Below are positions 29,930-47,923 of a stretch of 64,000 nucleotides of DNA, in pieces (position 1 is the stretch's first letter; every line of letters begins with the position of its first letter). Made by a program: the position numbers and the translations under genes. The DNA is from Halicephalobus mephisto. Taxonomy: Eukaryota; Nematoda; Chromadorea; Rhabditida; Panagrolaimidae. The notes under the pieces were generated by a model. It was not told the DNA's origin. It worked only from the letters and a program-made list of their open reading frames with translations, and did no database searches. The stretch lies in contig SWDT01000001.1 in the NCBI GenBank assembly GCA_009193035.1, forward strand, positions 682,001 to 746,000. The letters are read 5' to 3'.

Positions 29930-30956
29930 ATGCTGGTCACGCGTGCCTTGGTTTATCGCCCACTATTTCAGAGGTGAATTTGTTTCAGTCGATCCTGTGA
30001 TATTCACGGGCGTTTTCAGCTATTCATCCATCTGTGCTCGACCTGGGCTTGCCTTTTTCAGCACTTCAACTACTGAAGGGAGTCAGAACGACAAGAAAGC
30101 CCAACAAGGAGAGGGCGACAAGAAGTCTCAAGGATGGATATCTCGTTTCTTCTCTGGTCAGTATGATCCTAATAGCATTGACAAACAAAGCCATTCTTCC
30201 ATGCTCGCTGATTCCGAAGTTATATTTGAACTTCAGAGTATGTTTCTATTGATCTACTTCTGTTTATAGACCTTGAATACTTGTAGCTCATGATGTTCGT
30301 AATGGTGAGCGCGACAAGTACCTTGAGAGATTTCAACAATACACGAAAGAAGTTAACAAAGCAACTCCTGGATATGAATTGGTTGGGTCCTGGAATGTCG
30401 TCTTTGGAAATCCCGACCAATCAATTCATCTTTGGAGATATGATAATGGATACTCGGATGTCGATCGGTTTGCTAAGAACTTTGAGATCTCATTGATAGG
30501 AACCATTTCAGACACATTAAAGCCCTTGTTTCTAATTCTTCCGTACGAGCTGCGGAGAAGGATATTGCCAGTATGTGTGGTCGTCGTCGTACAGTCCTCA
30601 TGAAATCCTTCAGCTATTGGGGAGAACCTAAGCCTCGTGCTCCTTCACACGTCTATGACCTTCGTAGCTACGTCTTGAAGCCAGGATCAATGATTGAGTG
30701 GGGTAATGCGTGGGCTAAGGGAATTGCTTATCGTAAGGAGCACAACCAGAATGTCGCTGGATTCTTTGCCCAAGTCGGGCAGTTGTATATGGTTTTCCAC
30801 ATTTGGGCTTATCCGGACATGGCTGCACGTCAAATGACTCGTCAGACAACCTGGTTGAAGCCTGGATGGGACACCACTGTTGCTTACACAGTTCCGCTGA
30901 TCAAAAAGATGCAGTCCAAGATATTGGTGCCAAATGAGTTCTCCCATCTTCGATGA
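29930..30956 (+). CDS. NIPSNAP family mitochondrial protein
   Basis: NIPSNAP1/2 are mitochondrial matrix proteins that can be exposed on damaged mitochondria as a mitophagy signal. Four exons (29930-29973, 30020-30237, 30287-30467, 30512-30956) join in phase to 295 aa (human 284). Seen: an N-terminal presequence (MLVTRALVYRPLF), SSMLADSEVIFELQTHDVR, and GYELVGSWNVVFGNPDQSIH; then a second ferredoxin-like repeat with YDLRSYVLKPGSMIEWGNAW, FFAQVGQLYMVFHIWAYPDM and the final VPLIKKMQSKILVPNEFSHL. Intron 3 must use a GTTTGC donor within DVDR to restore the family sequence. Co-orientation with mtSSB suggests shared expression of mitochondrial genes. Confidence 0.93.
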
Positions 30957-32267
30957 ACGACGTCGAGTATATTAGGTTATTTTGAGGCTACGAGGAAATT
31001 TTGTACCGGTCAACCAAGGGATAACTGGATTGTCCCATTGCCGTAGCTGACAAAGATTACTGTACTTTCTATATTGCACAAATTAGTCATTTTATCTTAA
31101 GAATTCTGGTTCTCAGAGGGAACATTTTATAAATTTATTCATAAGGCTTTAGGTATTCCTTGAGCACAAAACAAAAATCGTGGGAAATCTGCGTTCATCC
31201 GGATTTTGGGGTAGTATCGGCTCTTGAAGAGGATCAAGACTCCAATACTCGAGGGTGCAGAACCGAAGCAAAAATTTATGAAAGCGACAAAAGCATTTTA
31301 TAAAAGGCACGTTCTTGACAGTTTTTGTATAAATGCAAAAATCAAAGGTGAGCAAAGATTATGGTCAAACACCAGTGTAAACTACTAAGAACCGAATGTA
31401 CCGGCAAGTGAGAATATGATGAATTGACTTCTCACACGCTAGTAGATGAGCATACAAAAATAGAAATTTGAGAGATTTCAAAAATGAATAAACTGTTGGT
31501 TTGTTATATTAGGAAGCTGGAACCATGAATGCGATAAATTCATCACACAGCATAAGCAAAACTGCTATCAGAGAGCTTTGAAACTGGATTGTTGAGCAAA
31601 ATAGACAAAAAGAGGCCGCCAATTATAAGTAGTATAGCACAATTATTCAAATGGTCATCTTAATGCTGGACTTCTCTTTTGAAACTGTATTCTTGCGACC
31701 CTTCCCTGTAAATGGCAGTTGAATGAAGTTCGGAGATTAGTGTTCCTGATTCGTCATAGTCGGATAGATCTTTCAATACTAAATACAATCATAAAACATT
31801 GCTGGAGATTACTTCGTAATTGGGTCTACAAAATCTATAATGGGAGAGTTGGTAGAATGAAACTACATTCGTTAGAGCGAGTAAGTTTTTTTATAACAAT
31901 TGCCATATGAATCATTCGCTTTCTTCAAATATGGAGTAGGATATGACAAATATTAGTAACTCAACATTATGTGCATTAGCCGTAGTTTTCCGAAATAAGG
32001 AAATCTGTCCGTACCATGTTGCGATATTGGTAAAGTTTGTCACATTTTACTCCATAATTGACTAAATTAAATGGTCTATATATCAGTTGATATACGAAAA
32101 GTTATTCGTTCTGATGCATATGATCTCATTTTAATACGTCTCTTACTAATTATAGATTTTTAGACCCAATTACGAAGTAATCTTCAGTAATGTTATATAT
32201 GATTGTATTGAATGCTAATAGATCTATCAAACTCTGATGAATTCGTAAACTAGAAAGAGCGAAATTC
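30957..32267. other. intergenic region with a foldback element
   Basis: 3' flanks of NIPSNAP (+) and the large - strand locus. It contains the inverted repeat at 31751-32246. Small frames such as 31719-31910 lie in the arms of this repeat and are not called. Confidence 0.45.
31751..32246. mobile_element. ~500-bp inverted-repeat (foldback) element
   Basis: The left arm (~31751-31850) and right arm (~32145-32246) are inverted copies, with a perfect 22-bp core at 31806-31827 and 32162-32183 (containing TTACTTCGTAATTGGGTC). Matching GATAGATC and CAATACTAAATACAATCAT-like blocks lie on the outer side. About 300 bp of less similar sequence lies between. It is likely a non-autonomous foldback transposon; exact termini are not defined. 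Confidence 0.65.
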
Positions 32268-35200
32268 TTACTTGAAATCAGTGGGGACTCCATCGCGATT
32301 CATGCGACGGCCGGCGTTGGCTTTGGATTCACGAGAGTAGGTTTCGTGACCACCTGGGATTTGTTCATGTCGGTAATCTTTCTCGTTCATGTTGCCATTG
32401 GGAAGTCGCATCAGCAGAGAATCGCGGAATTCATTTTCCAAACGGGCCATGTCATCTTCGTACCTAGAATGGAAGTGTCATTTTTTAATTTTGAAGGAGA
32501 TTACCTTCTGACGGAACTTCCAAAAGGTCCACGACCTTCATCCCAGTCAGCATAACTACGGGATTTGGTGAGTGGACGGTATTGACTTTCTGCAAATCCA
32601 CGATGAGGAGGCAATGTTGGGGGATCACCACGAGCTGAACGAGGAAGTGTCGGAGGAAATTCGACAAGAGGAGCATAGCCACTGGCACTGCCACGACGCC
32701 AGGAACTTTCGCGATCACGAGCTCCATCATGATAGACATCGCCTGGAAGAAATGTTGATTTTTATGTAATCTCCAAATTCTTACGAGTAGAGTAACTCTT
32801 GTGCATTTTACCACTTCGATTGTAGTTTTCTTTGAAGTCTCCGTTGGGGACGTACTTGAGTTCTCCTCTTCGAAGACTGTCAGACAAGGAGCCGTAGCGG
32901 GCATGAGCGAGTCCTCCTCGGTTGTCAATGTAGCGATTTCCGAATTCTCCTCCGAAGTCACGATCACGTCGGGAGGAAGTGGATCGATGGTAACTTTCAT
33001 AAGCAGGTAGATAGCCATTGTGACGTTGCATAGAGTTGCTTCGCCATTGTCCTAGAAAATAAAAGTTTGATTTTGAAAATAAAAATAAAAATGTTAGAAT
33101 AATTAATGAACGAAAAATAAAGCGTACGCAAATCACGATAAGCTCTATCCACCGCCGTGTACGCATTTCTGACTGCTTGGTTAAGTTCTTCAGCAGTGTA
33201 TCTCCTGCCATCGTATCGATGAAGGATTATCTGTTTTCTAGATCCTTTGTCAATTTGATCATGATCTTGACTGGTCTGAGCTGATTTGGAATATCTTTCA
33301 GATTCTTGTTGGTAGAATCGTTGTTGAGAAGCAGATTTCCTTGATTCTTCTTCCTCTAAGCTTTGGTGTTTGAAGGTCCTTTCTGCCGTCGTTTGGACCA
33401 TTCTTTCCCTTTCTTTCTTCTCAGCAGCGAGGAGCTTGGCTTCTGCTGCAGCTCTCCGGGCCTCGGCGACAATGGTTTCTTTATCTTCTCCTAAATGGGA
33501 CGGACAATGAAGCAACGTAAAAACGTTGATATTAGTATTCATGAATATGTGCTGATTATCTCTGTTGTGAGAGGAAGCTCAATCGACCTACCTCCTCCAC
33601 TTCCCCAGTCAACATATTCAGCATGATGACCGTGACCGTAACGATGACGACTGCTCTTGTGACGACGTTCTCGACGGATAATACGACGCTCAACTTCTTC
33701 GGTACGTTTCTGTTCTTCAACTCGTGATACAGTTTCTGTGACCTTTGGCTGCAAGATTAAATGGATAAATCTAGTTTTAAAAAGTTGTGTAACGTTTGTG
33801 TCCCGAGCATTCATCTTCCAATTCTGGAGTTGGAAATGAACAAAAAGTACTTATACTGAGGTAATCAAGCTTGTAAAATCTGAATCTGAAGTCAACAGGA
33901 GAAGTTGGTCTTCAGATTTCTAGATATTGAAGACTAGTCCCCAAGTCTAAGGATATATAAAAGTCTATCCAGGATTCTACAAAAAGTGAAAATTTGTTTA
34001 GAATAGATTTTAAACTGCTATATAAAACAGTTTTTTAAATAGGTTTCTAATTTTTGAATTAAAGTTGTGAAAATTGGAATATAAATACTTGGGACAAGAA
34101 GCTCAACGTATTTCAAAGTAATATTTAATTAGTGTTATTTTTACCTTAGCTCTGACGACCTCAACGACTCTACGCTCGGGTTCAGCGTAAGTCATTTGCT
34201 CTCGGCTCTCCAACTGACTTCGCTTCATGATGCTGCGAGGTTTATCATCATGCTGAAAAATGTTTATTATCACTGAATTCCTGTTTCTAAGTTGTTAGAA
34301 GAAAACACTGCACTAAGGATTAACATCACTGCATTTAAAAAAGTACCTTTGACGACTTGTTAACTTATTTTAACCTATAATTTTAAACCTTTTCCGAAAA
34401 TAAAAAATAGAATCCGAAGAATTCAGCAACAAACCTCGGAATTAGCGACAGTTGTCCGAACTTTCAATAACCCTTCGTCGACTTTGGCACCATTTAGCGA
34501 AACGATGGACTTTGGACTGAAGGAGTTGTTAAACTGCCAGGTAGCAGAGGAAGCATCCTAGAAAATAAGGAAAAGCATAAGGGATAATTAAGTAAAAGAA
34601 GAACAACGAAACATGAGGTATAGAATACAGTAGATTCTTGCAAAGTCCATTATGGCATTTTGCTGGCAGGGCTAAAGCTCTCACCGTGACGTATCCGCTT
34701 CTGTCATGCTGAACAAAAGAACCAGTATCTGTAGAAATTCTGGATTCAAGTATTTCCCGTATTTGCTCCTGCAAAAGCAGCTGTTACAGTAAGCTATAGC
34801 GTCGTAAAAGGAAATTTGGATAATTCAATCGTAAATATCGAAAGCATTAAATTTTGCTAAAGAATTATAATACCAAAAAGTACCTTGAAATGCGATGGTA
34901 ATGGTTCTGGATCAGTTTTAACGATATCTGATCCGACAAGATGGAAATCACTGCGACGGTTTTTGGACCGTTCCGAAAGTTCTTTATTCTTTCGAGCAAG
35001 TTCATCCAAGTCGTCATGCTGTGAAATTAATGCATATGTTATTTATTAATTCACACTTTAATTACGCCAAACCACAGCAGTTAGTAAGTAAGTAAAAAGT
35101 AAAACAAAAACTAACCTTTCTTGGTTCCTGGGCAGCCTAAAAAGAAAAAATTATTAACAATCATTGAATTTAAAATTTTAAAAACAAAAATGAGTTGAGA

Positions 35201-38200
35201 TTATTTTTATAAAAAGTTATTTTTAAATTTGACAAATTAGAACCTGAAAAAGGTAAATATTTGATCCCTGAAATTACCAGTAATTAGCACAAACCTCGAA
35301 TATATCGATGGCGAATTACAAGCCAATCTAGAAGCAACGGCGAAGGATAGCTTCAATACTCAAACAACAGCAACTTAGAATAAAGCAAATTCATAAAAGT
35401 TAAGCCACAAAATAGTTGGCAGTTCGAAGCATTGATGGAAACTGCAGTTTTAAAAACGGATAAAAAATGAAAGACCTGGATAAATTTAATCTGGTTTGTA
35501 TTCGAATAATAACTGAATGCAGACGAAAAGCTATGCACTAGTCCTAGGGAGATGAAGATATAAGCTAGAGATATCTGCTCCCAGCAGGAGAAGCAGGTTG
35601 ATGTCTCATCCCTGACGGTCCCATATAATAGCTAGAATTTGGCTGTGGGGGAGGAGGAGGCGGTGGAGGAGGGTAGCTACTTCTGATCGGAGCGTATTCA
35701 GCTGGATGGATTCCGCTCTGGACTGGCTGAGCCCTATGACTATCATGTCGATGAAGACCCTGAGAAACATGTTGTGCTGCGTTCTGAACAATCTGGACTA
35801 AACGACGAGTGTTTCCAGGTTGCTGTGGTGGAGGTGATCGAGGGGAGATTTGCTGATGTCCATATTGCGGAGATGGTGGACGCTAAAGAAAAAGTAGAAT
35901 GAGGAAAAGAAGGGCCAAGAAATGAACACCAACTTTGTATCCTGGTGGGAGAGGAGGAGGAAGATACGGTCTCGCCCTCTCGTAGCTCGGAGGAGCTGGA
36001 GAAGGCTGAGTAGCTTGTAAGATCCTTTGCAGACGCCTTTGTGAGGTGGCAGAAGCAGGACGGTCTTCGTGACGACTCCCCGGAGGCAAGGAAGAAGTGG
36101 AACTTTGGGGATAGTGAACGTGATGTTGAGAGGGTGTTTCAGATCGGGAATCACGACGTAAGATTTGGCGATCCCCGCCTGTCCTTTCACTTCTGCTGTG
36201 TCTGTGCCTATGCTGATGGGGTTCTCCCCGTGAATCCACTCGCCTAAGCAGAGTGCCACCATTAGGTGTTTGTGGAGTCTAAGATAGAATCGATAAAGAC
36301 AGTATTCAAGTCTCAAAACCCACATATGCTCTTCCAACCGAGTCAGACTGATGGAGTCTCGGAGTGGCGGAAGTTGAATGAAGCTGCTGGAATGCAAAAC
36401 AACATCACACAAAGCTCGGATTAGAAAGCGATCACATCAACTTTCTAAGCGACTCCTCTAGGGAAATTAAGAAACTTACAGAATTACTGCCTCTCTGTTC
36501 GCTGTAGGCCCTTCTTTGGAGAGTTGCCGCTGCTTGAGATTCAAAAAGTTGTAACCTTCTTCGAACGTCGATATTCGGAGGAGGATCCTTATTCGTGACA
36601 GTTGAAGAATGAGGTGGAAGATCGTAAATTTTCTCCCAATCATTGATTGCTAAATTGATAAATTCCTAGTAAAGTTGAGTCATAGAGTAACTTACCAGTC
36701 TTTGATTGAGAAAGTGTGTTCAACGATCGACTCCTCGATTGGCCTTGACCTCTCCTTTTGTCTTGAAGGTTTCTCTCATGAATAATCTCAATATCCTGGA
36801 TTTCTTGATCGACCATGTCTGGAGATAAGCTATTGTGGATCTGACTACTTCTTTTCTTAATGACTTTGACTGTATTGGGAGCATGAGGCAAGAATCCTCC
36901 AGAAGGAGCTTGTCTCGAGGCTTTGAAAGCCGGCTTTGGTCTATGACTTCCATCAGGAGAAGGCTGGATGACGTACTTCGTCTGTCTTTTAGCGACATCA
37001 TCCAGAGGTCCGGTTCCGAGTCCTCGACGAGGGGAATGTGGAGGAGAATGAGTTGGAGTAAAGTTTTTCTGCTCCTTCTTGAATGCTGGATCGTAGATAA
37101 CAGGTTGCCATCTGTATTCAGCATTATCAGGAATCCCTGGAGAAAAGTCGGGATTCTCCATCATTCCAGGTTCAACAGTCACCGGTCTTCTCAGAGTAGG
37201 CCAAATATACGGTTTATCTGGAGGTGGCTGCCATCTTTTGCCGGTTCTAAAGATTTGCGGCTCTTCCTCGGGCTTTTCGATGAAGGCTTCTCGACGTTTT
37301 AACAAATCAACTTCGAATCTTTCCTTTTCCAGAATTTCATCACTGGTCAGAATTTCATTCTTAGCAACAACTTCAGGTTGTTTGTCGAGAACATAGGTTC
37401 TTCTCCAAGTGGTTGCTGTTCCAGGGGAGACAACTTCACGAGAATCTGGAGCAATTTCCCCAGAAAGAACAGAAATCGGTCTAGTTTCGAATACACGGAC
37501 TGGTTGAGGTGTTTCAGCCGGCTCTTCTCTTGATTTCTCTCTTATATCCTCTATTGGGGACATTGCATGGATCTCCGGAATAGCTTGTGGCGGTTCACGA
37601 TATTGTTGAGGTTGCAGTTCAGGTTGTTCGCTGATTAGTTGTTGTCTCTGTTCATACAGCCTTTGTTGTTGGATCTGTATAGCCTGGAGCTGTTTTTGTC
37701 TCAAATAGTTTTCTCGCTGTTCTCGACGTCTAATAGCATCTAATTCTAGTTGTTTCTGCTTCCTAAACTCTTCAATCTTGTCTGGATCCAGAATACTACG
37801 AGCCATAGCACTAGCAGGTCGAGGACGGTCTTTGCTGGAAGGTGGAGGCCAAATAACGACTCCTTCATTCATTGGAGTTTCAGAATGTCTATTCAGTTCT
37901 ATTTCCGATGAAGAGATCTGCTTCATCCGGCTAGCCTCATGGTAACGACTCTCATCGTATTGGTAACGCATTTCTTCTTCGTAACGTCGTTGATCGGAGC
38001 TCGACATCGGGGCGACTGACTGAGATCTAGAAAATCAATCGATAAATCTAATTTTATTTGATTTCTCACCTTGGTCGATCAGCAGAAGTCCTGCCAGGTG
38101 TTACTTCTTCGAGCTTGAAGAAGGGACCGTTGAAGGAAGTCGTCGGATACTTTGGAACATTCTGGGGAGTGTAGCTTCTGTTTTCACGATGTTTCCTAAG

Positions 38201-41200
38201 ATTCTCCTGCATGATCCGGAACCGTTCTGCATCATCTAATTCATAATTACTACCATAATGAGCAGGAGTTCTGTTGGAAACTCTGTTAGATGGTTCTCCT
38301 TGTTCGTGATTCTGGGAGTACGAAGGAGGTTCGTGCATCTCTGTCCTTTCTTGTCGGTAAATTTGACTTCTCTCTTCCCAAGATTGTTCCTGGTCGGAAT
38401 AAAACTGTTGTTGTACGAAACTTTGTTTCAGGATAGATTTAGGTGTTTGCCGACCAGGTGGTGGGGACATCAAACGCTCACTGAAGTCGTCTTCAGGTTG
38501 ACGAGCCGGCGGAATTCGGCTCTGAGAAGTACTTCTTTCCTGATGGGAAGTAGAAGCCTGACTGATATTAACTGCTAAGACACTTGGAGCGATTGGTTTA
38601 TTCTCGTAGACGACCTTTTCCGGGGGACGTGGAGCCGGGGTGTTCTCCGAAAGCACTTGATCCGTGCTTCCTGGAGGATATAGGAGCTATAGAAATATTC
38701 ATTAGGACACATCAATAACCAATCAAGATACCTGACTACCAGATCGTTTTTGCGATGTTAGAGGGGCTGATAATCTATGAGATTCAAATTCTTGCTGAGA
38801 TCGTCTACCTTGATGCTCCGATTCACTTAAAAAAGAGGATCGCCGTCGTTCCTAAATGTCACAGTAATAAAAGTTTACAAAAATTTCTAGTTTTTTGCCT
38901 ATTCCGTTTTTGAGTCTTGTTTTCAAACATTCATCAACCTAGGCATCGATTTAAAAAATGTTGAAGGGCTTGGCGGTTGAAGTGGTTTCGAGGCATGCGC
39001 AACAAGTCGACGATTGTTAGTAAATGCAGGAGCAGAAGAAAAACGACCGCAAAAGCAGTTTCGCAAACATTTTTCTTGGGGAAGCGCTCAATGCTAACAC
39101 TTTCTTGAAAGGGGATCTAACTGAATCCAGTGATTCACAAATTTACTAGAGAATTAACAAGTACCAAAGATGCCTGAGTGGTGACACTGCTTGCACTACT
39201 GCCTTCATGGGGAGCCTCCTGGATGTCCGGCAGAGAAGGGGTGATGTGTCCCAGAGGAGTTCCTGCATAGGCTCTACTTCCTCCAGTGACCCCGATGATC
39301 GGAGCAGTTCTATGATGAGCATGACGCTGAGCGTCCCTTCTAATCTGCTCCAAATAGGCATTCTTAAGTTGTTGGACATTGGAAATCCTCTTCTGACTTT
39401 GTTCTTGATTGAAAGACATTGCACTCAGAAAGATGTCGTTCTACCCCATCAGCTCTTAAGGAGTAGTAGACTTCATCAGATCTCAAAGCTTAAAAGGCCA
39501 AATAAGGTCAAATCTCGCAGAAGACACGAAATAAAACAAATTTAATATTCAAAAAAGGTGAAAAGTTTGAGCTCGAAGAAGAGGTGAGCAATTGAGAATT
39601 TCAGTGTCAATTTAGACAGCTAATTGTAAGGTCGTCGTGTAGATGAAGTGCGATCAGAAAGCGGCCAGAGGATGACAGAGCACCATGAAAGAACAAACTC
39701 TCGGGGATTTGCACAGGAGAAGCACGCACAAAGTGCTAGGTACTATGCTTTTCGCTGTGACTCTCATTGCGTATTTTTGAAGTCCTGAATTTTTGCGATG
39801 TTTGACTCGAGCAAACGGAATAGACTTTTGCGCACAAAAATAAGTCCAAGATCAGAAGCAAGTATCCGATCTTCGACCATGGGAATAATTATGTAAATCT
39901 TCAACATACGATGTACTTGGAGAGATGGAATTCCTTCTTCAACTGCCACGAGAGTTCGTCGACGTTCCTGCTGGGACGACCCCAAACGGATGGATCCTGA
40001 AATTGATATTTTAAGCTGACTGAAGGGTCGAATCAAATCGATGGCCAATTAAAATCATATCAAAGAATCTGATCTCATTCAAGTCCAATAAACAACTTAG
40101 AAAAATACAAAATCAAAAGGGCGGAGTCTTGTCTTAAAGTTGGAAAAACTAGCACATCAGCATTACTTAACGTTTACTATTTCCACAAAGCTTGCTGCAA
40201 CCATTGTTATTTGTGATCTCCGTACACAAGGTACTACAGTTGTCCATTGTTTCTTCTTTACTACAGACTCGAGGACGTACGGACCGTACTTCCCTGATTG
40301 CAACTCTCCTGAGCATGCGCCCACTTGGCGAGCTTCGGAGTTTTCTCTGTCGGCTTAAGCAAGTCCCTCATGAGACGTTTCAATCAGAGGTACACCTAGA
40401 ACTATTCTAGCAAGCTGCGATGCAACGTCAAGTGGAGGACCCGATGCACTATCTCGCCCACCAATGCTTCCCGCAAAAAAAGAAAGTAAGTAGATAAATC
40501 TACGCTGGCTAGCCACGGAATGACTGACTCCTCCGCTTTCGAGAGGAACTGCGCCTGGAACTTTGTCGATCGAAGTCAAACAAGTCAATGACTATTCGGG
40601 AGCCTGGTCCAAAAATTTGTTGTTCAATCAGATCTTGACCGGAAAATGTAAACAGGGATTTCCAAAAGTTGGAAAAGCTAACCAAGAGGGACTAACCTGA
40701 TTTCTCAGATCACCGACAGATCTAGCCTTAGAAGGGATGGAATTTCTGGCATTCTGAAGGTATCGATGAGTTCTGACTTTGACCAGCCATCCAGAATCCG
40801 AAACTTTATTCGGATCATGCTAAAATCAGAACTTGGAGGTTGTATAGCAATAAAGAACTTACTATGTCTTCTTCCTTTACCGGATCCAACATTAACTCTC
40901 CCATCGACTGTGTTCTTTTCATAACACGCTAAAACATGTTGTGTTCTTTTTAGAATTACGAAATCAAAGGGGAAGGGGCTGTGATTCGAAAAATATGAAT
41001 TCAATACAATCCAGATTTTCAAACGATAATTCCAAATTCAAGAGATTAGATAGACAATCAAGAATGAGTTTGACTTGGGGAGGATTTTAATAATTAATTC
41101 GGTAGAGCTACTTACGTGCAATGGGAAGAACAGGAGAAGGCACAGCAGTCAGCTACAGATGGAGCTTGTTTCCCTTGGTTTTGTCAATTTTTTGATTTTT

Positions 41201-43735
41201 TTGATTTTTTAAATCTCAACTCATTTTTGTTTTCAACATAGGGAACATTTAAGGACGCCACAAAACAAAGGATTAAGCTTGACGGATAAAGCAAAACATA
41301 AATAGCTGAAGCTTCCAATAAAAGAAAACAATGATATTAATACTCCGAATGCTGACTGTAAATTCGATATAGTTTGATAGATTTTTGAACGGTGAATCCA
41401 AAGATACTAGAAGTTTTTTACCTGTGTCCATGGAAATTAAAAAAATAGTTTAAATATTTGTAAAAATTATTGAGCTCAGATATAATCCTAGAAGTAGGTG
41501 CTCCAAAAAATTTTCATAGAAAAATGACGCGTGATTATTAATTCTTGATGTGATAAAAGTTTTGGAGTTTTTTGTAATGCTTATTTTTTGTCCAAGTTTT
41601 AGTGTTTTTTAGAATATCTATATATTAAAAGCTATAATAAGTGCAAATGTTATTCTGTAGATTTGAAGAAAAAAGTGATCGATGGTATTCGATCATGAGA
41701 AAAAATATACTGTTACTATACTTTTTAATATCCGAAGAATACAAATTCAAGATGGATGAAGTTCTTCAAGACAGCAGGAACTCTAATTACTCATAGGAAA
41801 CTAAGAAAAACATCACAAGCTGTTGACCGGGGTTTCCAGATGATTTTCAGAGTCAATCCTCATCTGCCAATTTCATTTATAAGGAATGCAATTCTCGGCC
41901 TCAGATGACGATTTCACCAGTAGTCGAACAATAAGATTGATTGAAGTCGGTTTGCATGGTCGTTATGTAGTCAAGAAACCATTGATTTCCTCGAAGAATA
42001 GAAAGATCAGACTTGATTAGACACGGGAGCACCGTCTTTAATCTATTGACATGTGAGTGAAGGTCCTCTGGAGTGACAAAGCAGCATTCCATTTATTTGG
42101 TACTGAAGGAATTCACTAAATACGATGTATCTACGATACAGCATTCGTTCTACATCACCAGATTTCAACAATCAAACTCATCTGGATCTACGTCGGAAGA
42201 AAGTGCTGCGACCAACAAATCAGAAATTGAGATGAAAAATTTGCTTTAATCAAATGGAAATGGAACAATATTGATCGGTCTTTCATTGACAAATTAATCC
42301 GGTCTATGAAAGACAGTTCTCGATCAGTAATTATAGCTCGTAGATGTCCTGCTAGATATTGAGTTTGTGTATTTTAAAATTAAAATAAATTCTGCAGACA
42401 AAAACACTAAATTTTCAAAATCGATCATGTTAAAAATGGAAAATCTCGCGTCGATTTGCGTGAAAATTTCTTAACGTGTATAAAAGTAGCTGCTGGTAAA
42501 ATAATTGATGATAACTTCATAATATTAGCATTTAATTAACAGCTAATTCAACGAATCCAAAGTTATAAAGAAAATTTTAAAATTCCATTACTTTTACTCG
42601 CTATTGTACAAAAATCTATAAGATGTCGAAATAGAAACAAAATCCACTTCAAACCTCCATAAGCCCAGCCAAAAGCGGCAAATACAAATAACTTATAGGT
42701 GGTTTGATTGCTTATTCGACTGACTTTCAGTAAAATCTATTATTCTCGCCATAACTACTGCATTAGTGAAGTTATGATTTTGTAGAAAAATTGAAAAAGT
42801 ACTTTTAAATTTAATTCTTCGTGGACCCAACTGAAGAATTTCCAAAAATTTTCAGTACCATTAGATTCACTGTTCAAAGATCTCTCTATACTGAACTTAC
42901 ATTCAGCACTCGAAGCGTTAAATGTGAAGTTTGTGAACTGAACGAGACAAGGACAAGTGATTGGGTATTAGTTTTAGTGTTACTGACGAGGACTCCACAA
43001 CTTACTTTCTGGAGATTATCTATTTTCTTACGAATAAGCTCAAGTTCACGCATGCTCTCTCCGGTATCATCATTGGCCTAGAATACATAATGACTGTCAG
43101 ATAATCCAAAAAATGACTTTATACCTTCGGTCCGGGCCAAGCTGGTTTATTCCAGGGCTTATTAGCGTCGTCCTCACTAGCTTTGAGGAACTGTCTAAGT
43201 TTAGAAGCTTCCATCTCTCGATGCCTATCCAGGGATTCGGTCAAATAAGTACTGGTAGTGATTGGACGGCTCTGGATGCTCTAAAACCAAGAATTGGATT
43301 TGCTAGATTACTTGCAAAACAAACTCGAATTCGACGTTGCTCCAACGGGTCCAAGTTGAGCAGGGATCTTTTTCCATGCTCGCTGGGAAAATCTCCAACA
43401 GTTCTGCGTCCATAATTCGGGAGGCTTCCAGTTTGACTGGGGATATGGGCATTGGAATTGACTCGAGGATCGATAATCTGCATCCGGAATTGCTCAGCAC
43501 TTCTTTCTGCCTTGTAATCCCCGTTTTGGGCTGAGATTCTTTCAGAATAGGCATGACTCCCACCCATATGAATCTCAGAACCAACTTGTTTTTCTTGGAG
43601 TTTGTAAATAGGAGTGACGATCTTGACACTAGAAGTCTGTGTTTCAGCTTGAGTCTGATCTCTGGGCAGATCCTTTTGTACAGTTTCAATTGTATGTTTG
43701 ATCTGCTCCAGATCTCGAACCATTTCCTCCGTCAT
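32268..43735 (-). CDS. large unrecognised protein, 868-aa model with split exons
   Basis: Six 5' exons (43325-43735, 43125-43280, 43006-43077, 40863-40928, 40697-40819, 39910-39996) all end in phase 0 (305 codons). Ten 3' exons (35116-35136, 34884-35018, 34685-34768, 34435-34557, 34145-34252, 33592-33748, 33128-33490, 32785-33051, 32505-32742, 32268-32463) start in phase 0 and reach a stop (564 codons). Joined, they give 868 aa. Seen: an N-terminal coiled-coil start (MTEEMVRDLEQIKHTI), a KPWNKPAWPGPK motif, SGWLVKVRTHRYLQNARN, a 21-nt microexon (AAQEPRK), a long Arg/Glu-rich coiled-coil region (VAEARRAAAEAKLLAAEKK), and a Tyr/Arg-rich tail. No enzyme domain. It looks like a cytoskeletal or scaffold protein, but I do not recognise it. 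The join across 39910-35136 is inferred; alternatively the 5' exons splice into the 1072-aa model inside that interval. Confidence 0.55.
35116..35136 (-). other. 21-nt microexon
   Basis: Encodes AAQEPRK in phase 0. It is bounded by TTTTTAG upstream and GTTAGT downstream on the coding strand. It may be alternatively included. Confidence 0.5.
35565..39419 (-). CDS. unrecognised Pro/Gln/Arg-rich protein, 1072 aa, inside the large locus
   Basis: Eight exons (39165-39419, 38732-38851, 38070-38686, 36696-38026, 36480-36649, 36324-36386, 35934-36278, 35565-35882) join in phase to 1072 aa, from ATG (MSFNQEQSQKRISNVQQL) to TAG. Mostly predicted disorder. Seen: RQTPKSILKQSF, SFNGPFFKLEEVTPGRTS, a Gln/Arg-rich coiled coil (~450-530), Trp motifs RWQPPPDKPYIWPTLRRP and YRWQPVIYDPAF, GLGTGPLDDVAKRQTKYV, RPKPAFKA, DWEKIYDLPPH, and a C-terminal poly-proline tract of nine prolines that could bind SH3/EVH1 domains. 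No family recognised; a cytoskeletal adaptor is a guess. The first exon has no canonical acceptor before its ATG, so it looks like a separate transcription start, nested in the same-strand intron between the 5' and 3' exon blocks of the 868-aa model. Confidence 0.6.
40355..40588 (-). other. open frame inside the large locus, status unclear
   Basis: A 77-codon frame containing VPGAVPLESGGVSHSVASQ and GRDSASGPPLDVASQLARIVL. The flanking exons (ending at 40697 and starting at 39996) already join in phase without it. It may be an alternative exon or chance. Confidence 0.25.
41116..41152 (-). other. possible alternative 37-nt exon
   Basis: Bounded by CTGTAG and GTAAGT on the - strand. Its length breaks the phase of the 868-aa model. 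It could instead be a 5' leader exon for a shorter form starting at the ATG in the next exon (MKRTQSMGELML). Confidence 0.25.
41901..42092 (-). other. coding-like 63-codon frame in an intron of the large locus
   Basis: Contains TPEDLHSHVNRLKTVLPCL and RGNQWFLDYITTMQTDFNQ, which look coding in composition. It lies in the 2-kb intron 43005-40929 and ends at its own stop. No family recognised; it could be a small gene or a terminal alternative exon. Confidence 0.25.
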
Positions 43736-46060: not shown

Positions 46061-47923
46061 TTATATTCTTTTTCGAGGTCGTTTGCGATAACGTGTGTAT
46101 GTAGGACGTTCATAAAAACCAATTTTTGCATTCCGAAGAGCTTTAATCAGATCATCGAAACCATTCTGGCCACTCAGTCGGAACTGATAGTCCTTGACCA
46201 GTCTCTCAAATTGAGTCATCGGTGGACGTGCACCTGAATGCGTATATTTGACTGGAGCAAATGTGTTCTTCCATGGAGGAGTCGTCGTTGTCTGAATATT
46301 TGTCTTTTCCGGTACTTGAAAATCACTCAGTTCATCGCGTCCGAAGATGGAGTCAAATTCTGCTTGTTCTCTTTCCTTGAAGTCTTCAGTCAGGACACCA
46401 GCTTGAACGACTGGATTTCTTATCTGGACATCTCGAGAATTAGAACTTTCTGCTTTGGGCAGGGGCATTATATGTTCTCGGATGGCCAAAACCGGTTTTT
46501 CGAAATCTTGGGTCAAGTTGTAGTTTCGTTGTTCATCTGGTAAATCAACTTCTGAGGACGGTTGGAGTGGTGATTCATAGTCTTCCACATCTGATTCCTC
46601 ATCCGAACCGGATCCGTAACTGAGTCTTGTATCCACTGTTTTTACTTCTAGTTTCTCTTGAATCCTTCGAATTGGATTGGAAGCCACCGATTCTTCATTG
46701 ACAAGTTTGACTGGCTCGGAAATATCCAGAGATGGCTAAAAGTAAGCTTTTTTTAATTCTCGAAAAAATTCCAGCAAACCTGCACATCAGCATTTCCCGT
46801 AGTTGTCAAAACAGTCGTTGTGGGACTCGTTTCAGTAATTGTAACTGTAGTTGGAGGAGTTGTAGTTGTCCTAGCTGGTGTTTTGTGCGTTTCTTCTACG
46901 TGTTGTTGGAGTCTTTTGTGAACTTCCTCTTCCAGAACTTTCTCCACGAGCATCAAAAAATTATGAGCTTCATTTGTGGAGATATTTGTAGCAGCTAAAA
47001 ATGATTCAATCTTCTTGTTCTCCAATTGTTCTGATAGATCTGAAATTAATCAATCAGATTAAAAGTTGCGCGGAAAGAACAAACGAAAAATGGAACCGGT
47101 GTTATTGATTTTTGCTAAGGATTCTGAAGTTGTCGATCGGAACAAGGGAGTTGGTGGTGCTATTGACGTGCTTGTAGAAGTGGAGGGAGTAGCTTCAGTT
47201 GCAGTAGGTGTTGTAATAACCGTTGTCGGCTGAGTTGCAGCTAGATTTACTTCTTCTGATTGTTCACTAGATTGTAAATTTCCAATTTCTTCATTTAATT
47301 CCGTAATATTGATATCTGATAGATTACTTGTGGATACACTGGATTTTGAACCTGATTCAAATCCCTCAGTAGGACTATCATCTTTTGGTCCATTGAACAA
47401 AGTCGCTGAAAGTGCTTTTGGAAGAGTCTGAAATCATCATTTTTTCGTCTATCTAAGTCATCAAATCACCTCTAAAATCTTCAATGGTTCCTTTTTCGTC
47501 TCAGCCACTTTCTTATCATTTACAATAGGAGGTATAACGACCACTGGAATAGGATTTGAGATTTCAGAAGAAGAACTTGGTTGATACAATGGGTTGGGGA
47601 CTGTCACAGTAATGAACTTGTTGTTATGATTAAAGATTGGAGATGGTGTCACTCTGAGGACCGCAAACGGGTCGATTGTTGGTGGTGTTATCGCAATAGC
47701 TCGATGAAGAGCATGGAATCCTTCCAAAGGTGGTATCAGTTCGAATAAAGGCCGATGAGATTGTTGAACCAAAGTTTGAGATGACGTTTTTAGATTTGGG
47801 AACTCTGGCTGTAAATAGTCTGTGAAGAACTGATAAATCAAAGATTATTACCTTCTGCGCTTTTATTTGATAAGAAGTAAGAAACAGCATCCATGGAATA
47901 AGGAAGAGCCGCAGTTTCTGCAT
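46061..47923 (-). CDS. secreted Thr/Ser-rich protein of unknown function
   Basis: Five exons (47852-47923, 47470-47808, 47085-47427, 46780-47039, 46061-46735) join in phase to 562 aa. Exon 1 is exactly an N-terminal signal peptide plus one residue (MQKLRLFLIPWMLFLTSYQI...). The rest is Pro/Thr/Ser-rich, with mucin-like TTTVLTTT and TTVITTPTATEATPSTSTST tracts that would suit O-glycosylation. It has acidic stretches (SDEESDVEDYE) and a basic C-terminal tail ending RYRKRPRKRI. There are few cysteines. No domain recognised; an extracellular matrix, cuticle or mucin-like role is inference. It is divergent from the nucleoside transporter gene, 545 bp away. Confidence 0.65.

What the first reader, a model, noticed from the sequence alone, without database searches (positions are those of the whole stretch)
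32268..43735. Two large unrecognised proteins interleaved on one strand
Six 5' exons (43735-39910) and ten 3' exons (35136-32268) all meet in phase 0 and give an 868-aa protein. Between them lies an eight-exon, 1072-aa model with its own ATG and stop. It may be a same-strand nested gene or one locus with alternative promoters and alternative C-termini. Neither product matches a family I know, despite clear motifs (KPWNKPAWPGPK, RWQPPPDKPYIWPT, GWLVKVRTHRYLQN) and coiled coils. This is the best candidate here for an undescribed system, perhaps a cytoskeletal scaffold pair.
Basis: partly seen in the sequence, partly recalled or inferred. Interest (0 to 1): 0.75.

Follow-up and report, generated by a model that had tools for sequence, protein, structure and literature searches.

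The report
Nematode pat-12 hemidesmosome adaptor gene
The two 'unknown' interleaved proteins are alternative products of one known roundworm gene, pat-12, which helps anchor muscle through the skin to the cuticle, so the finding is a well-read but ordinary gene.

Summary
They are not an undescribed system. Both match nematode PAT-12/GEI-16, implicated in fibrous organelles (hemidesmosomes). A Halicephalobus relative carries the modules of both, except exons B2 and A8, in one annotated 1836-aa protein, at 77-97% identity. Matches in its own genome lie only at this locus.

So it is one gene with several starts, two protein ends and in-frame exon skipping, not two nested genes. Two corrections:
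1. The join 39910->35136 is unsupported. Exons 5-6 (40819-39910) appear in 17 of 104 relatives, always with 'inner' exons, never in the 19 outer-type relatives. Of 13 relatives readable after exon 6, nine continue with 38851-like sequence, including C. elegans isoform d; none with 35136-like sequence. The outer isoform runs 43006->35136.
2. The outer protein does not end at 32268. That stop straddles a splice donor; the last exon is 31705-31660.

The parts
43325..43735 (-). pat-12 exon A1 (start codon 43735)
   Evidence: start and sequence conserved in Halicephalobus P0058
43125..43280 (-). exon A2 (KPWNKPAWPGPK motif)
43006..43077 (-). exon A3; in 13 of 19 outer-type relatives continues directly to an A7-like micro-exon (35136)
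40863..40928 (-). exon A4 (KRTQSMGEL); A4-like sequence also seen in one outer-type Haemonchus isoform (P0015)
40697..40819 (-). exon A5 (GWLVKVRTHRYLQN); relatives use it together with B exons
39910..39996 (-). exon A6 (ELSWQLKKEFHLSKYI); continues to B2-like sequence in 9 of 13 relatives, including C. elegans isoform d
39165..39419 (-). exon B1, alternative first exon (ATG 39419); internal in some relatives
   Evidence: P0057 starts here; P0031, P0058, P0081 reach it after A6
38732..38851 (-). exon B2
38070..38686 (-). exon B3
36696..38026 (-). exon B4 (RWQPPPDKPYIWPT); holds the conserved region used
36480..36649 (-). exon B5
36324..36386 (-). exon B6
35934..36278 (-). exon B7 (phase-0 donor, so it could also splice in frame to 35136)
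35565..35882 (-). exon B8 with stop; alternative C-terminus SPAGSRYL*
   Evidence: 21 of 38 B-type relatives end SP...[YF]L
35116..35136 (-). exon A7, 21-nt micro-exon AAQEPRK
34884..35018 (-). exon A8, cassette (skipped in P0001)
34685..34768 (-). exon A9, cassette (skipped in P0001)
34435..34557 (-). exon A10, cassette (skipped in P0002)
34145..34252 (-). exon A11
33592..33748 (-). exon A12
33128..33490 (-). exon A13, cassette (absent in P0001, P0002); weak donor
32785..33051 (-). exon A14
32505..32742 (-). exon A15
32272..32463 (-). exon A16, corrected end at donor CAA|GTAAGA (reader read on into it to a stop at 32268)

Best explanation
The window holds, on the minus strand at 43735-31660, the pat-12 (gei-16) orthologue of a nematode close to Halicephalobus. 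One gene makes several proteins from alternative first exons (A1 at 43735, B1 at 39419, probably one near A5 and one just before A7), two alternative protein ends (B8 stop at 35565, A17 stop at 31660) and in-frame skipping of phase-matched cassette exons. The main classes are: A1-3 + A7-17 (790 aa with all cassettes), A1-6 + B2-8 (1292 aa), B1-8 (1072 aa) and forms with the outer 3' block only. By homology to C. elegans, the products are largely unstructured, partly helical intracellular adaptors of the epidermal fibrous organelle (hemidesmosome), tying plakin (VAB-10A) and other components together so that muscle force reaches the cuticle. Shown here: homology, exon structure, frame compatibility, no second copy found, module combinations in relatives. 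Inferred: isoform expression in this species, the extra start sites, localisation and adaptor function (from C. elegans and filarial literature; VAB-10A binding recalled).
For: Outer model: 57 proteins at E<=0.001, named pat-12 in C. elegans, C. briggsae, Dirofilaria and Aphelenchoides. Inner model: 57 proteins, including 'Isoform d of Protein pat-12' of C. elegans and a C. elegans entry under the name T17H7.5. The modules of both models, bar exons B2 and A8 and part of B8, lie in one annotated Halicephalobus protein, P0058. Of 104 relatives, 20 carry B plus outer 3' block sequence and 20 carry exons 1-3 plus B sequence, so the parts are exchangeable. Exon 3 is followed by an A7-like micro-exon in 13 of 19 outer-type relatives, A6 by B2-like sequence in 9 of 13. 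P0001 is a 606-aa frame on a 2420-nt contig, so most likely a spliced transcript (inference). The only matches in the own genome are at this locus. Function: passages in PMC2063515, PMC11373843 and PMC10909979; the title of Hetherington et al. 2011 seen only in reference lists.
Against: Most relatives are, by their source labels, gene predictions rather than cDNA, and several rows come from one gene (Haemonchus gives six of the 19 outer-type rows). No transcript of this species was available. The long fusions (e.g. P0058) could be over-joined predictions, and P0058 skips B2 and A8. The splice from B8 into A7 implied by P0057 and P0058 (after EYAP) has no GT donor at that place in the window; the best phase-0 donor inside B8 is weak (2.0 bits at 35769) and the nearest one (35681) is out of phase.
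Confidence: 0.93

Rival explanations
1. Two independent genes: an 868-aa gene whose large intron holds a complete second, same-strand gene of 1072 aa.
For: Each model has its own ATG and stop. Other genomes annotate what look like two neighbouring genes here, judged from consecutive tags (Haemonchus V3C99_001708/001709, Strongyloides SRAE_2000281500/281600, Pristionchus), and the B tail is conserved in 21 of 38 B-type relatives.
Against: 20 of 104 relatives carry exons 1-3 with B exons and 20 of 104 carry B with the outer 3' block. C. elegans names both kinds pat-12. Exons 5-6 travel only with B (17 of 17).
Confidence: 0.04
2. The reader's exact outer isoform (exons 1-6 joined to 35136) is a genuine major product.
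For: All its junctions are in frame with GT/AG splice sites, A6 donor 6.0 bits and A7 acceptor 10.4 bits. One Haemonchus isoform carries A4-like sequence before A7 (P0015).
Against: 0 of 19 outer-type relatives contain A5 or A6 at the 50% threshold; 0 of 13 relatives readable at the end of A6 continue into A7.
Confidence: 0.1
3. A previously undescribed cytoskeletal protein pair.
For: No Pfam family at E<=0.1 for either full model; no solved relative at E<=0.1 for the outer protein or at E<=1 for a profile of B-type relatives.
Against: Both are PAT-12, already named and studied in C. elegans and discussed as a nematode-specific component.
Confidence: 0.01

Closest known systems
C. elegans PAT-12 (pat-12 / gei-16; gene name T17H7.4 recalled, T17H7.5)
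   Same: Homologous in the modules: 55% identity over the best local stretch (25% of the outer protein), 40% over 83% of the inner one. The outer isoform P0007 lacks exons 4-6 and the B exons. Isoform d (P0076) joins A6 to B2-like sequence and ends ...SPNPRFL like the window's ...SPAGSRYL.
   Different: Isoform d has no B1 start and begins just before A5; P0007 lacks exon A13 and has a different segment in place of A7.
Halicephalobus sp. NKZ332 FO519_003382 (P0058, 1836 aa)
   Same: Nearest named relative; modules 77-97% identical.
   Different: Annotated as one fusion through A6-B1 and B8-A7, without B2 and A8; the window also supports separate ends.
Filarial OvB20 antigen (pat-12/gei-16 homologue)
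   Same: Passages of PMC2063515 describe it as encoded by a filarial pat-12/gei-16 homologue and located in hypodermis and cuticle foci.
   Different: Not compared directly here.

Membership tests
PAT-12 / GEI-16 | Sequence homology to C. elegans PAT-12 over the exon 1-3, B and A8-A17 modules | tested here: met
PAT-12 / GEI-16 | Single-copy locus, no better-matching paralogue in the genome | tested here: met
   5 and 14 matches, all at this locus (the genome search scores only its best candidates: 5 and 12)
PAT-12 / GEI-16 | Multi-isoform gene with exchangeable 5' and 3' modules | tested here: met
   frame compatibility in the window; module combinations in relatives. Expression in this species not tested
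PAT-12 / GEI-16 | Restricted to nematodes | tested here: met
   66 hits at E<=1 with a conserved B region, all at E<=6.1e-25; each hit listed with an organism name is a nematode, as. A few hits are unnamed, the search needs shared 5-residue words, and searches scored only about 7985 candidates
PAT-12 / GEI-16 | Localisation to fibrous organelles / hemidesmosomes and binding to the plakin VAB-10A | not testable with these tools
   literature passages and titles only
ZASP-like (ZM motif) proteins | Pfam/SMART-type ZM-related domain | tested here: inconclusive
   Six relatives bear the automatic name 'ZM domain-containing' (P0041, P0046, P0063, P0071, P0095, P0111). Pfam scans at E<=1 of 15 and 14 relatives gave no ZM-related family; the most frequent match was DUF501 in 2 of 15 (best E 0.009), and none in the 14. 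SMART itself was not available

The most novel reading that the evidence does not exclude
PAT-12 is in effect two proteins under one gene name. The B product, with its own start, exon A5-A6 lead and C-terminal SP..(Y/F)L tail, and the outer A product share few or no exons in many isoforms, so a single 'PAT-12' function may be two distinct hemidesmosome components whose separate roles have not been dissected (the full text of the main C. elegans paper was not available to check this).
Probability: 0.25. Interest if true: 0.35.

Novelty: new member of a known kind. Interest (0 to 1): 0.12.

Why it matters
It settles a candidate 'undescribed system' as a known, nematode-specific attachment gene and corrects its model (one missed last exon, one unsupported junction). 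It also suggests why some annotations split this locus into two genes. Modest use: the conserved tail of the B form and the strict pairing of exons A5-A6 with B point to two separable PAT-12 products that could be tested in C. elegans.

Tried and rejected
Pfam: four ORF pieces gave only matches at E 0.057 or worse; both full models gave none at E<=0.1; 29 relatives gave only scattered weak matches, best DUF501 at E 0.009 in 2 of 15 and none in 14. PDB sequence searches gave nothing at E<=0.1 for the outer protein, nothing at E<=1 for a B-type profile and two weak hits at E 0.38 and 0.51 for an outer-type profile. AlphaFold2 on a B-type (C. elegans isoform d, P0076) and a 3'-block-type (Plectus, P0024) relative gave mean pLDDT 43.8 and 48.6, i.e. 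mostly low confidence with isolated helices, so no fold search was run. A third protein search with a conserved B region sought relatives outside nematodes and listed none. A search for a nucleoside-transporter neighbour (suggested by a C. briggsae protein, P0027) found four matches, none on the window's contig. The protein-kinase search served only to learn the genome's size and handle. The key paper (Hetherington et al. 2011) is not held; its title was seen only in reference lists.

The 57 hits each give 104 distinct proteins, all used; the 8 extra proteins (P0105-P0112) were not put through the exon-usage count. Thresholds were set by eye (A5b = A5 or A6 at >=50% positive positions). The 28 of 66 3'-block relatives that lack the strict C-terminal motif were not examined one by one, and 16 of the 38 B-type relatives do not end in (Y/F)L.

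Full report
What was claimed and what is there. I rebuilt both from the window: the exons, splice dinucleotides and phases are as described, giving 868 aa and 1072 aa with no internal stop. The window lies in a 59.9-Mb assembly of 331 contigs. The nearest named relative is Halicephalobus sp. NKZ332, a genus of the nematode family Panagrolaimidae, so the host is probably a close relative of it; the exact species is not known to me.

Identity. The outer protein finds 57 proteins at E<=0.001, among them 'Protein pat-12' of C. elegans, CBR-PAT-12, and PAT-12 of Dirofilaria and Aphelenchoides. The inner protein finds 57 proteins, among them 'Isoform d of Protein pat-12' of C. elegans and a C. elegans entry named T17H7.5. 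Together that is 104 distinct proteins. The hits listed with an organism name are nematodes; a few are unnamed. Both searches scored only the roughly 7985 candidates that share most words. In this genome both proteins match only this locus.

Architecture. I aligned all 104 relatives to the window's exons laid in genomic order and scored exon use. Classes by set thresholds: 27 carry only the outer 3' block, 25 only B, 19 exons 1-3 plus the outer 3' block, 8 exons 1-3 plus B plus 3' block, 7 B plus 3' block, 6 exons 1-3 plus A5/A6 plus B, 6 A5/A6 plus B, 5 everything, 1 exons 1-3 plus B. The modules are freely combined, which two independent nested genes would not show. Exons A5/A6 occur in 17 of 104, always with B (17 of 17), and in 0 of the 19 outer-type proteins. 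At the junction level, 13 relatives are readable at the end of A6: 9 continue with B2-like sequence (E followed by RR or HRR), including C. elegans isoform d; 3 reach B1-like sequence after some extra residues (P0031, P0058, P0081); 1 is unclear (P0086); none continues with A7. Of the 19 outer-type proteins, 13 show a 7-8-residue segment like the micro-exon right after exon 3; the other six are P0015 (A4-like sequence first), P0007 and P0008 (a different segment) and P0049, P0050 and P0052 (no micro-exon). The rows are not independent: Haemonchus supplies six of the 19, Pristionchus three, and Meloidogyne two plus a similar unnamed one (P0050). The A4-like sequence in the Haemonchus isoform P0015 means that A4 alone may enter outer-type forms.

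Transcript-like evidence. P0001 (606-aa frame on a 2420-nt contig) and P0002 (636-aa frame on a 2132-nt contig) join exon 3 to the micro-exon A7. P0001 then skips A8 and A9; P0002 skips A10; both lack A13. Contigs that short with unbroken frames are most likely spliced transcripts; that is inference, as the listing does not say.

Correction of the 3' end. Of 66 proteins with the 3' block, 38 match a strict form of the motif; the other 28 were not examined one by one. After a 566-nt intron with acceptor TTTACAG, the exon 31705-31660 reads EGSQEYSFKREVQH and a stop, in frame. The outer isoform A1-3 + A7-17 is then 790 aa and A1-6 + B2-8 is 1292 aa.

The inner stop is probably real. Of 38 B-type relatives without the 3' block, 21 end in SP followed by up to four residues and (Y/F)L, and 22 in (Y/F)L; 16 do not, among them filarial and root-knot forms and some that look cut short. 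The window ends SPAGSRYL. P0057 and P0058, which run from B into the 3' block, leave B8 after EYAP; the window has no GT donor there, and the best phase-0 donor inside B8 is weak (35769, 2.0 bits). Skipping B8 from the phase-0 donor of B7 (6.1 bits) would keep the frame.

Function. [quoted passage not shown] its filarial homologue is the OvB20 antigen (PMC2063515). PAT-12 is among hemidesmosome proteins enriched in PTPN-22 proximity labelling (PMC11373843, passages) and a putative PPH-7 target (PMC10909979, passages). The title of Hetherington et al. [quoted passage not shown] I saw that title only in reference lists. Predicted structures of two relatives are mostly of low confidence with isolated helices (mean pLDDT 48.6 and 43.8), which fits an extended adaptor but proves nothing.

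Verdict. A correct and careful reading of a complicated gene, but the gene is known. It is scored low for novelty. The remaining open point is whether the B and outer products of pat-12 have separate roles.

Noticed in passing
window 31749-32242: The last intron of pat-12 (A16-A17) is mostly a ~494-bp near-palindromic (foldback, MITE-like) sequence: arms 31749-31832 and 32157-32242, and 70% identity of the whole stretch to its own reverse complement. No other copy was found in the genome, in a search that skips very common words.
   Followed up: partly
window 30486-30956 (+): A frame matching the NIPSNAP family (PF07978, E 2.9e-31) ends tail-to-tail with pat-12, about 0.7 kb from its true last exon.
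   Followed up: no
window 35565-35590 and relatives: C-terminal tail SP..(Y/F)L of the B-type PAT-12 form, shared by 21 of 38 B-type relatives. Function unknown.
   Followed up: partly
   Followed up: no
relatives P0041, P0046, P0063, P0071, P0095, P0111, P0110: Automatic names of PAT-12 relatives are scattered and probably wrong (ZM domain in six, CCDC66, SDP_N, PEHE, 'Bifunctional protein GlmU'); Pfam scans of 29 relatives, which did not include all of these, gave no support.
   Followed up: partly
protein searches: No relative named as Enoplea (e.g. Trichinella, Trichuris) is listed in any of three searches; Plectus was the most outlying named nematode (placement of these taxa recalled). 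The family may be limited to Chromadorea or too divergent for the search.
   Followed up: no
window 46061-47844 (-): A run of long Thr/Pro/Ser-rich open frames, possibly exons of a neighbouring gene; the one frame scanned had no Pfam match.
   Followed up: no
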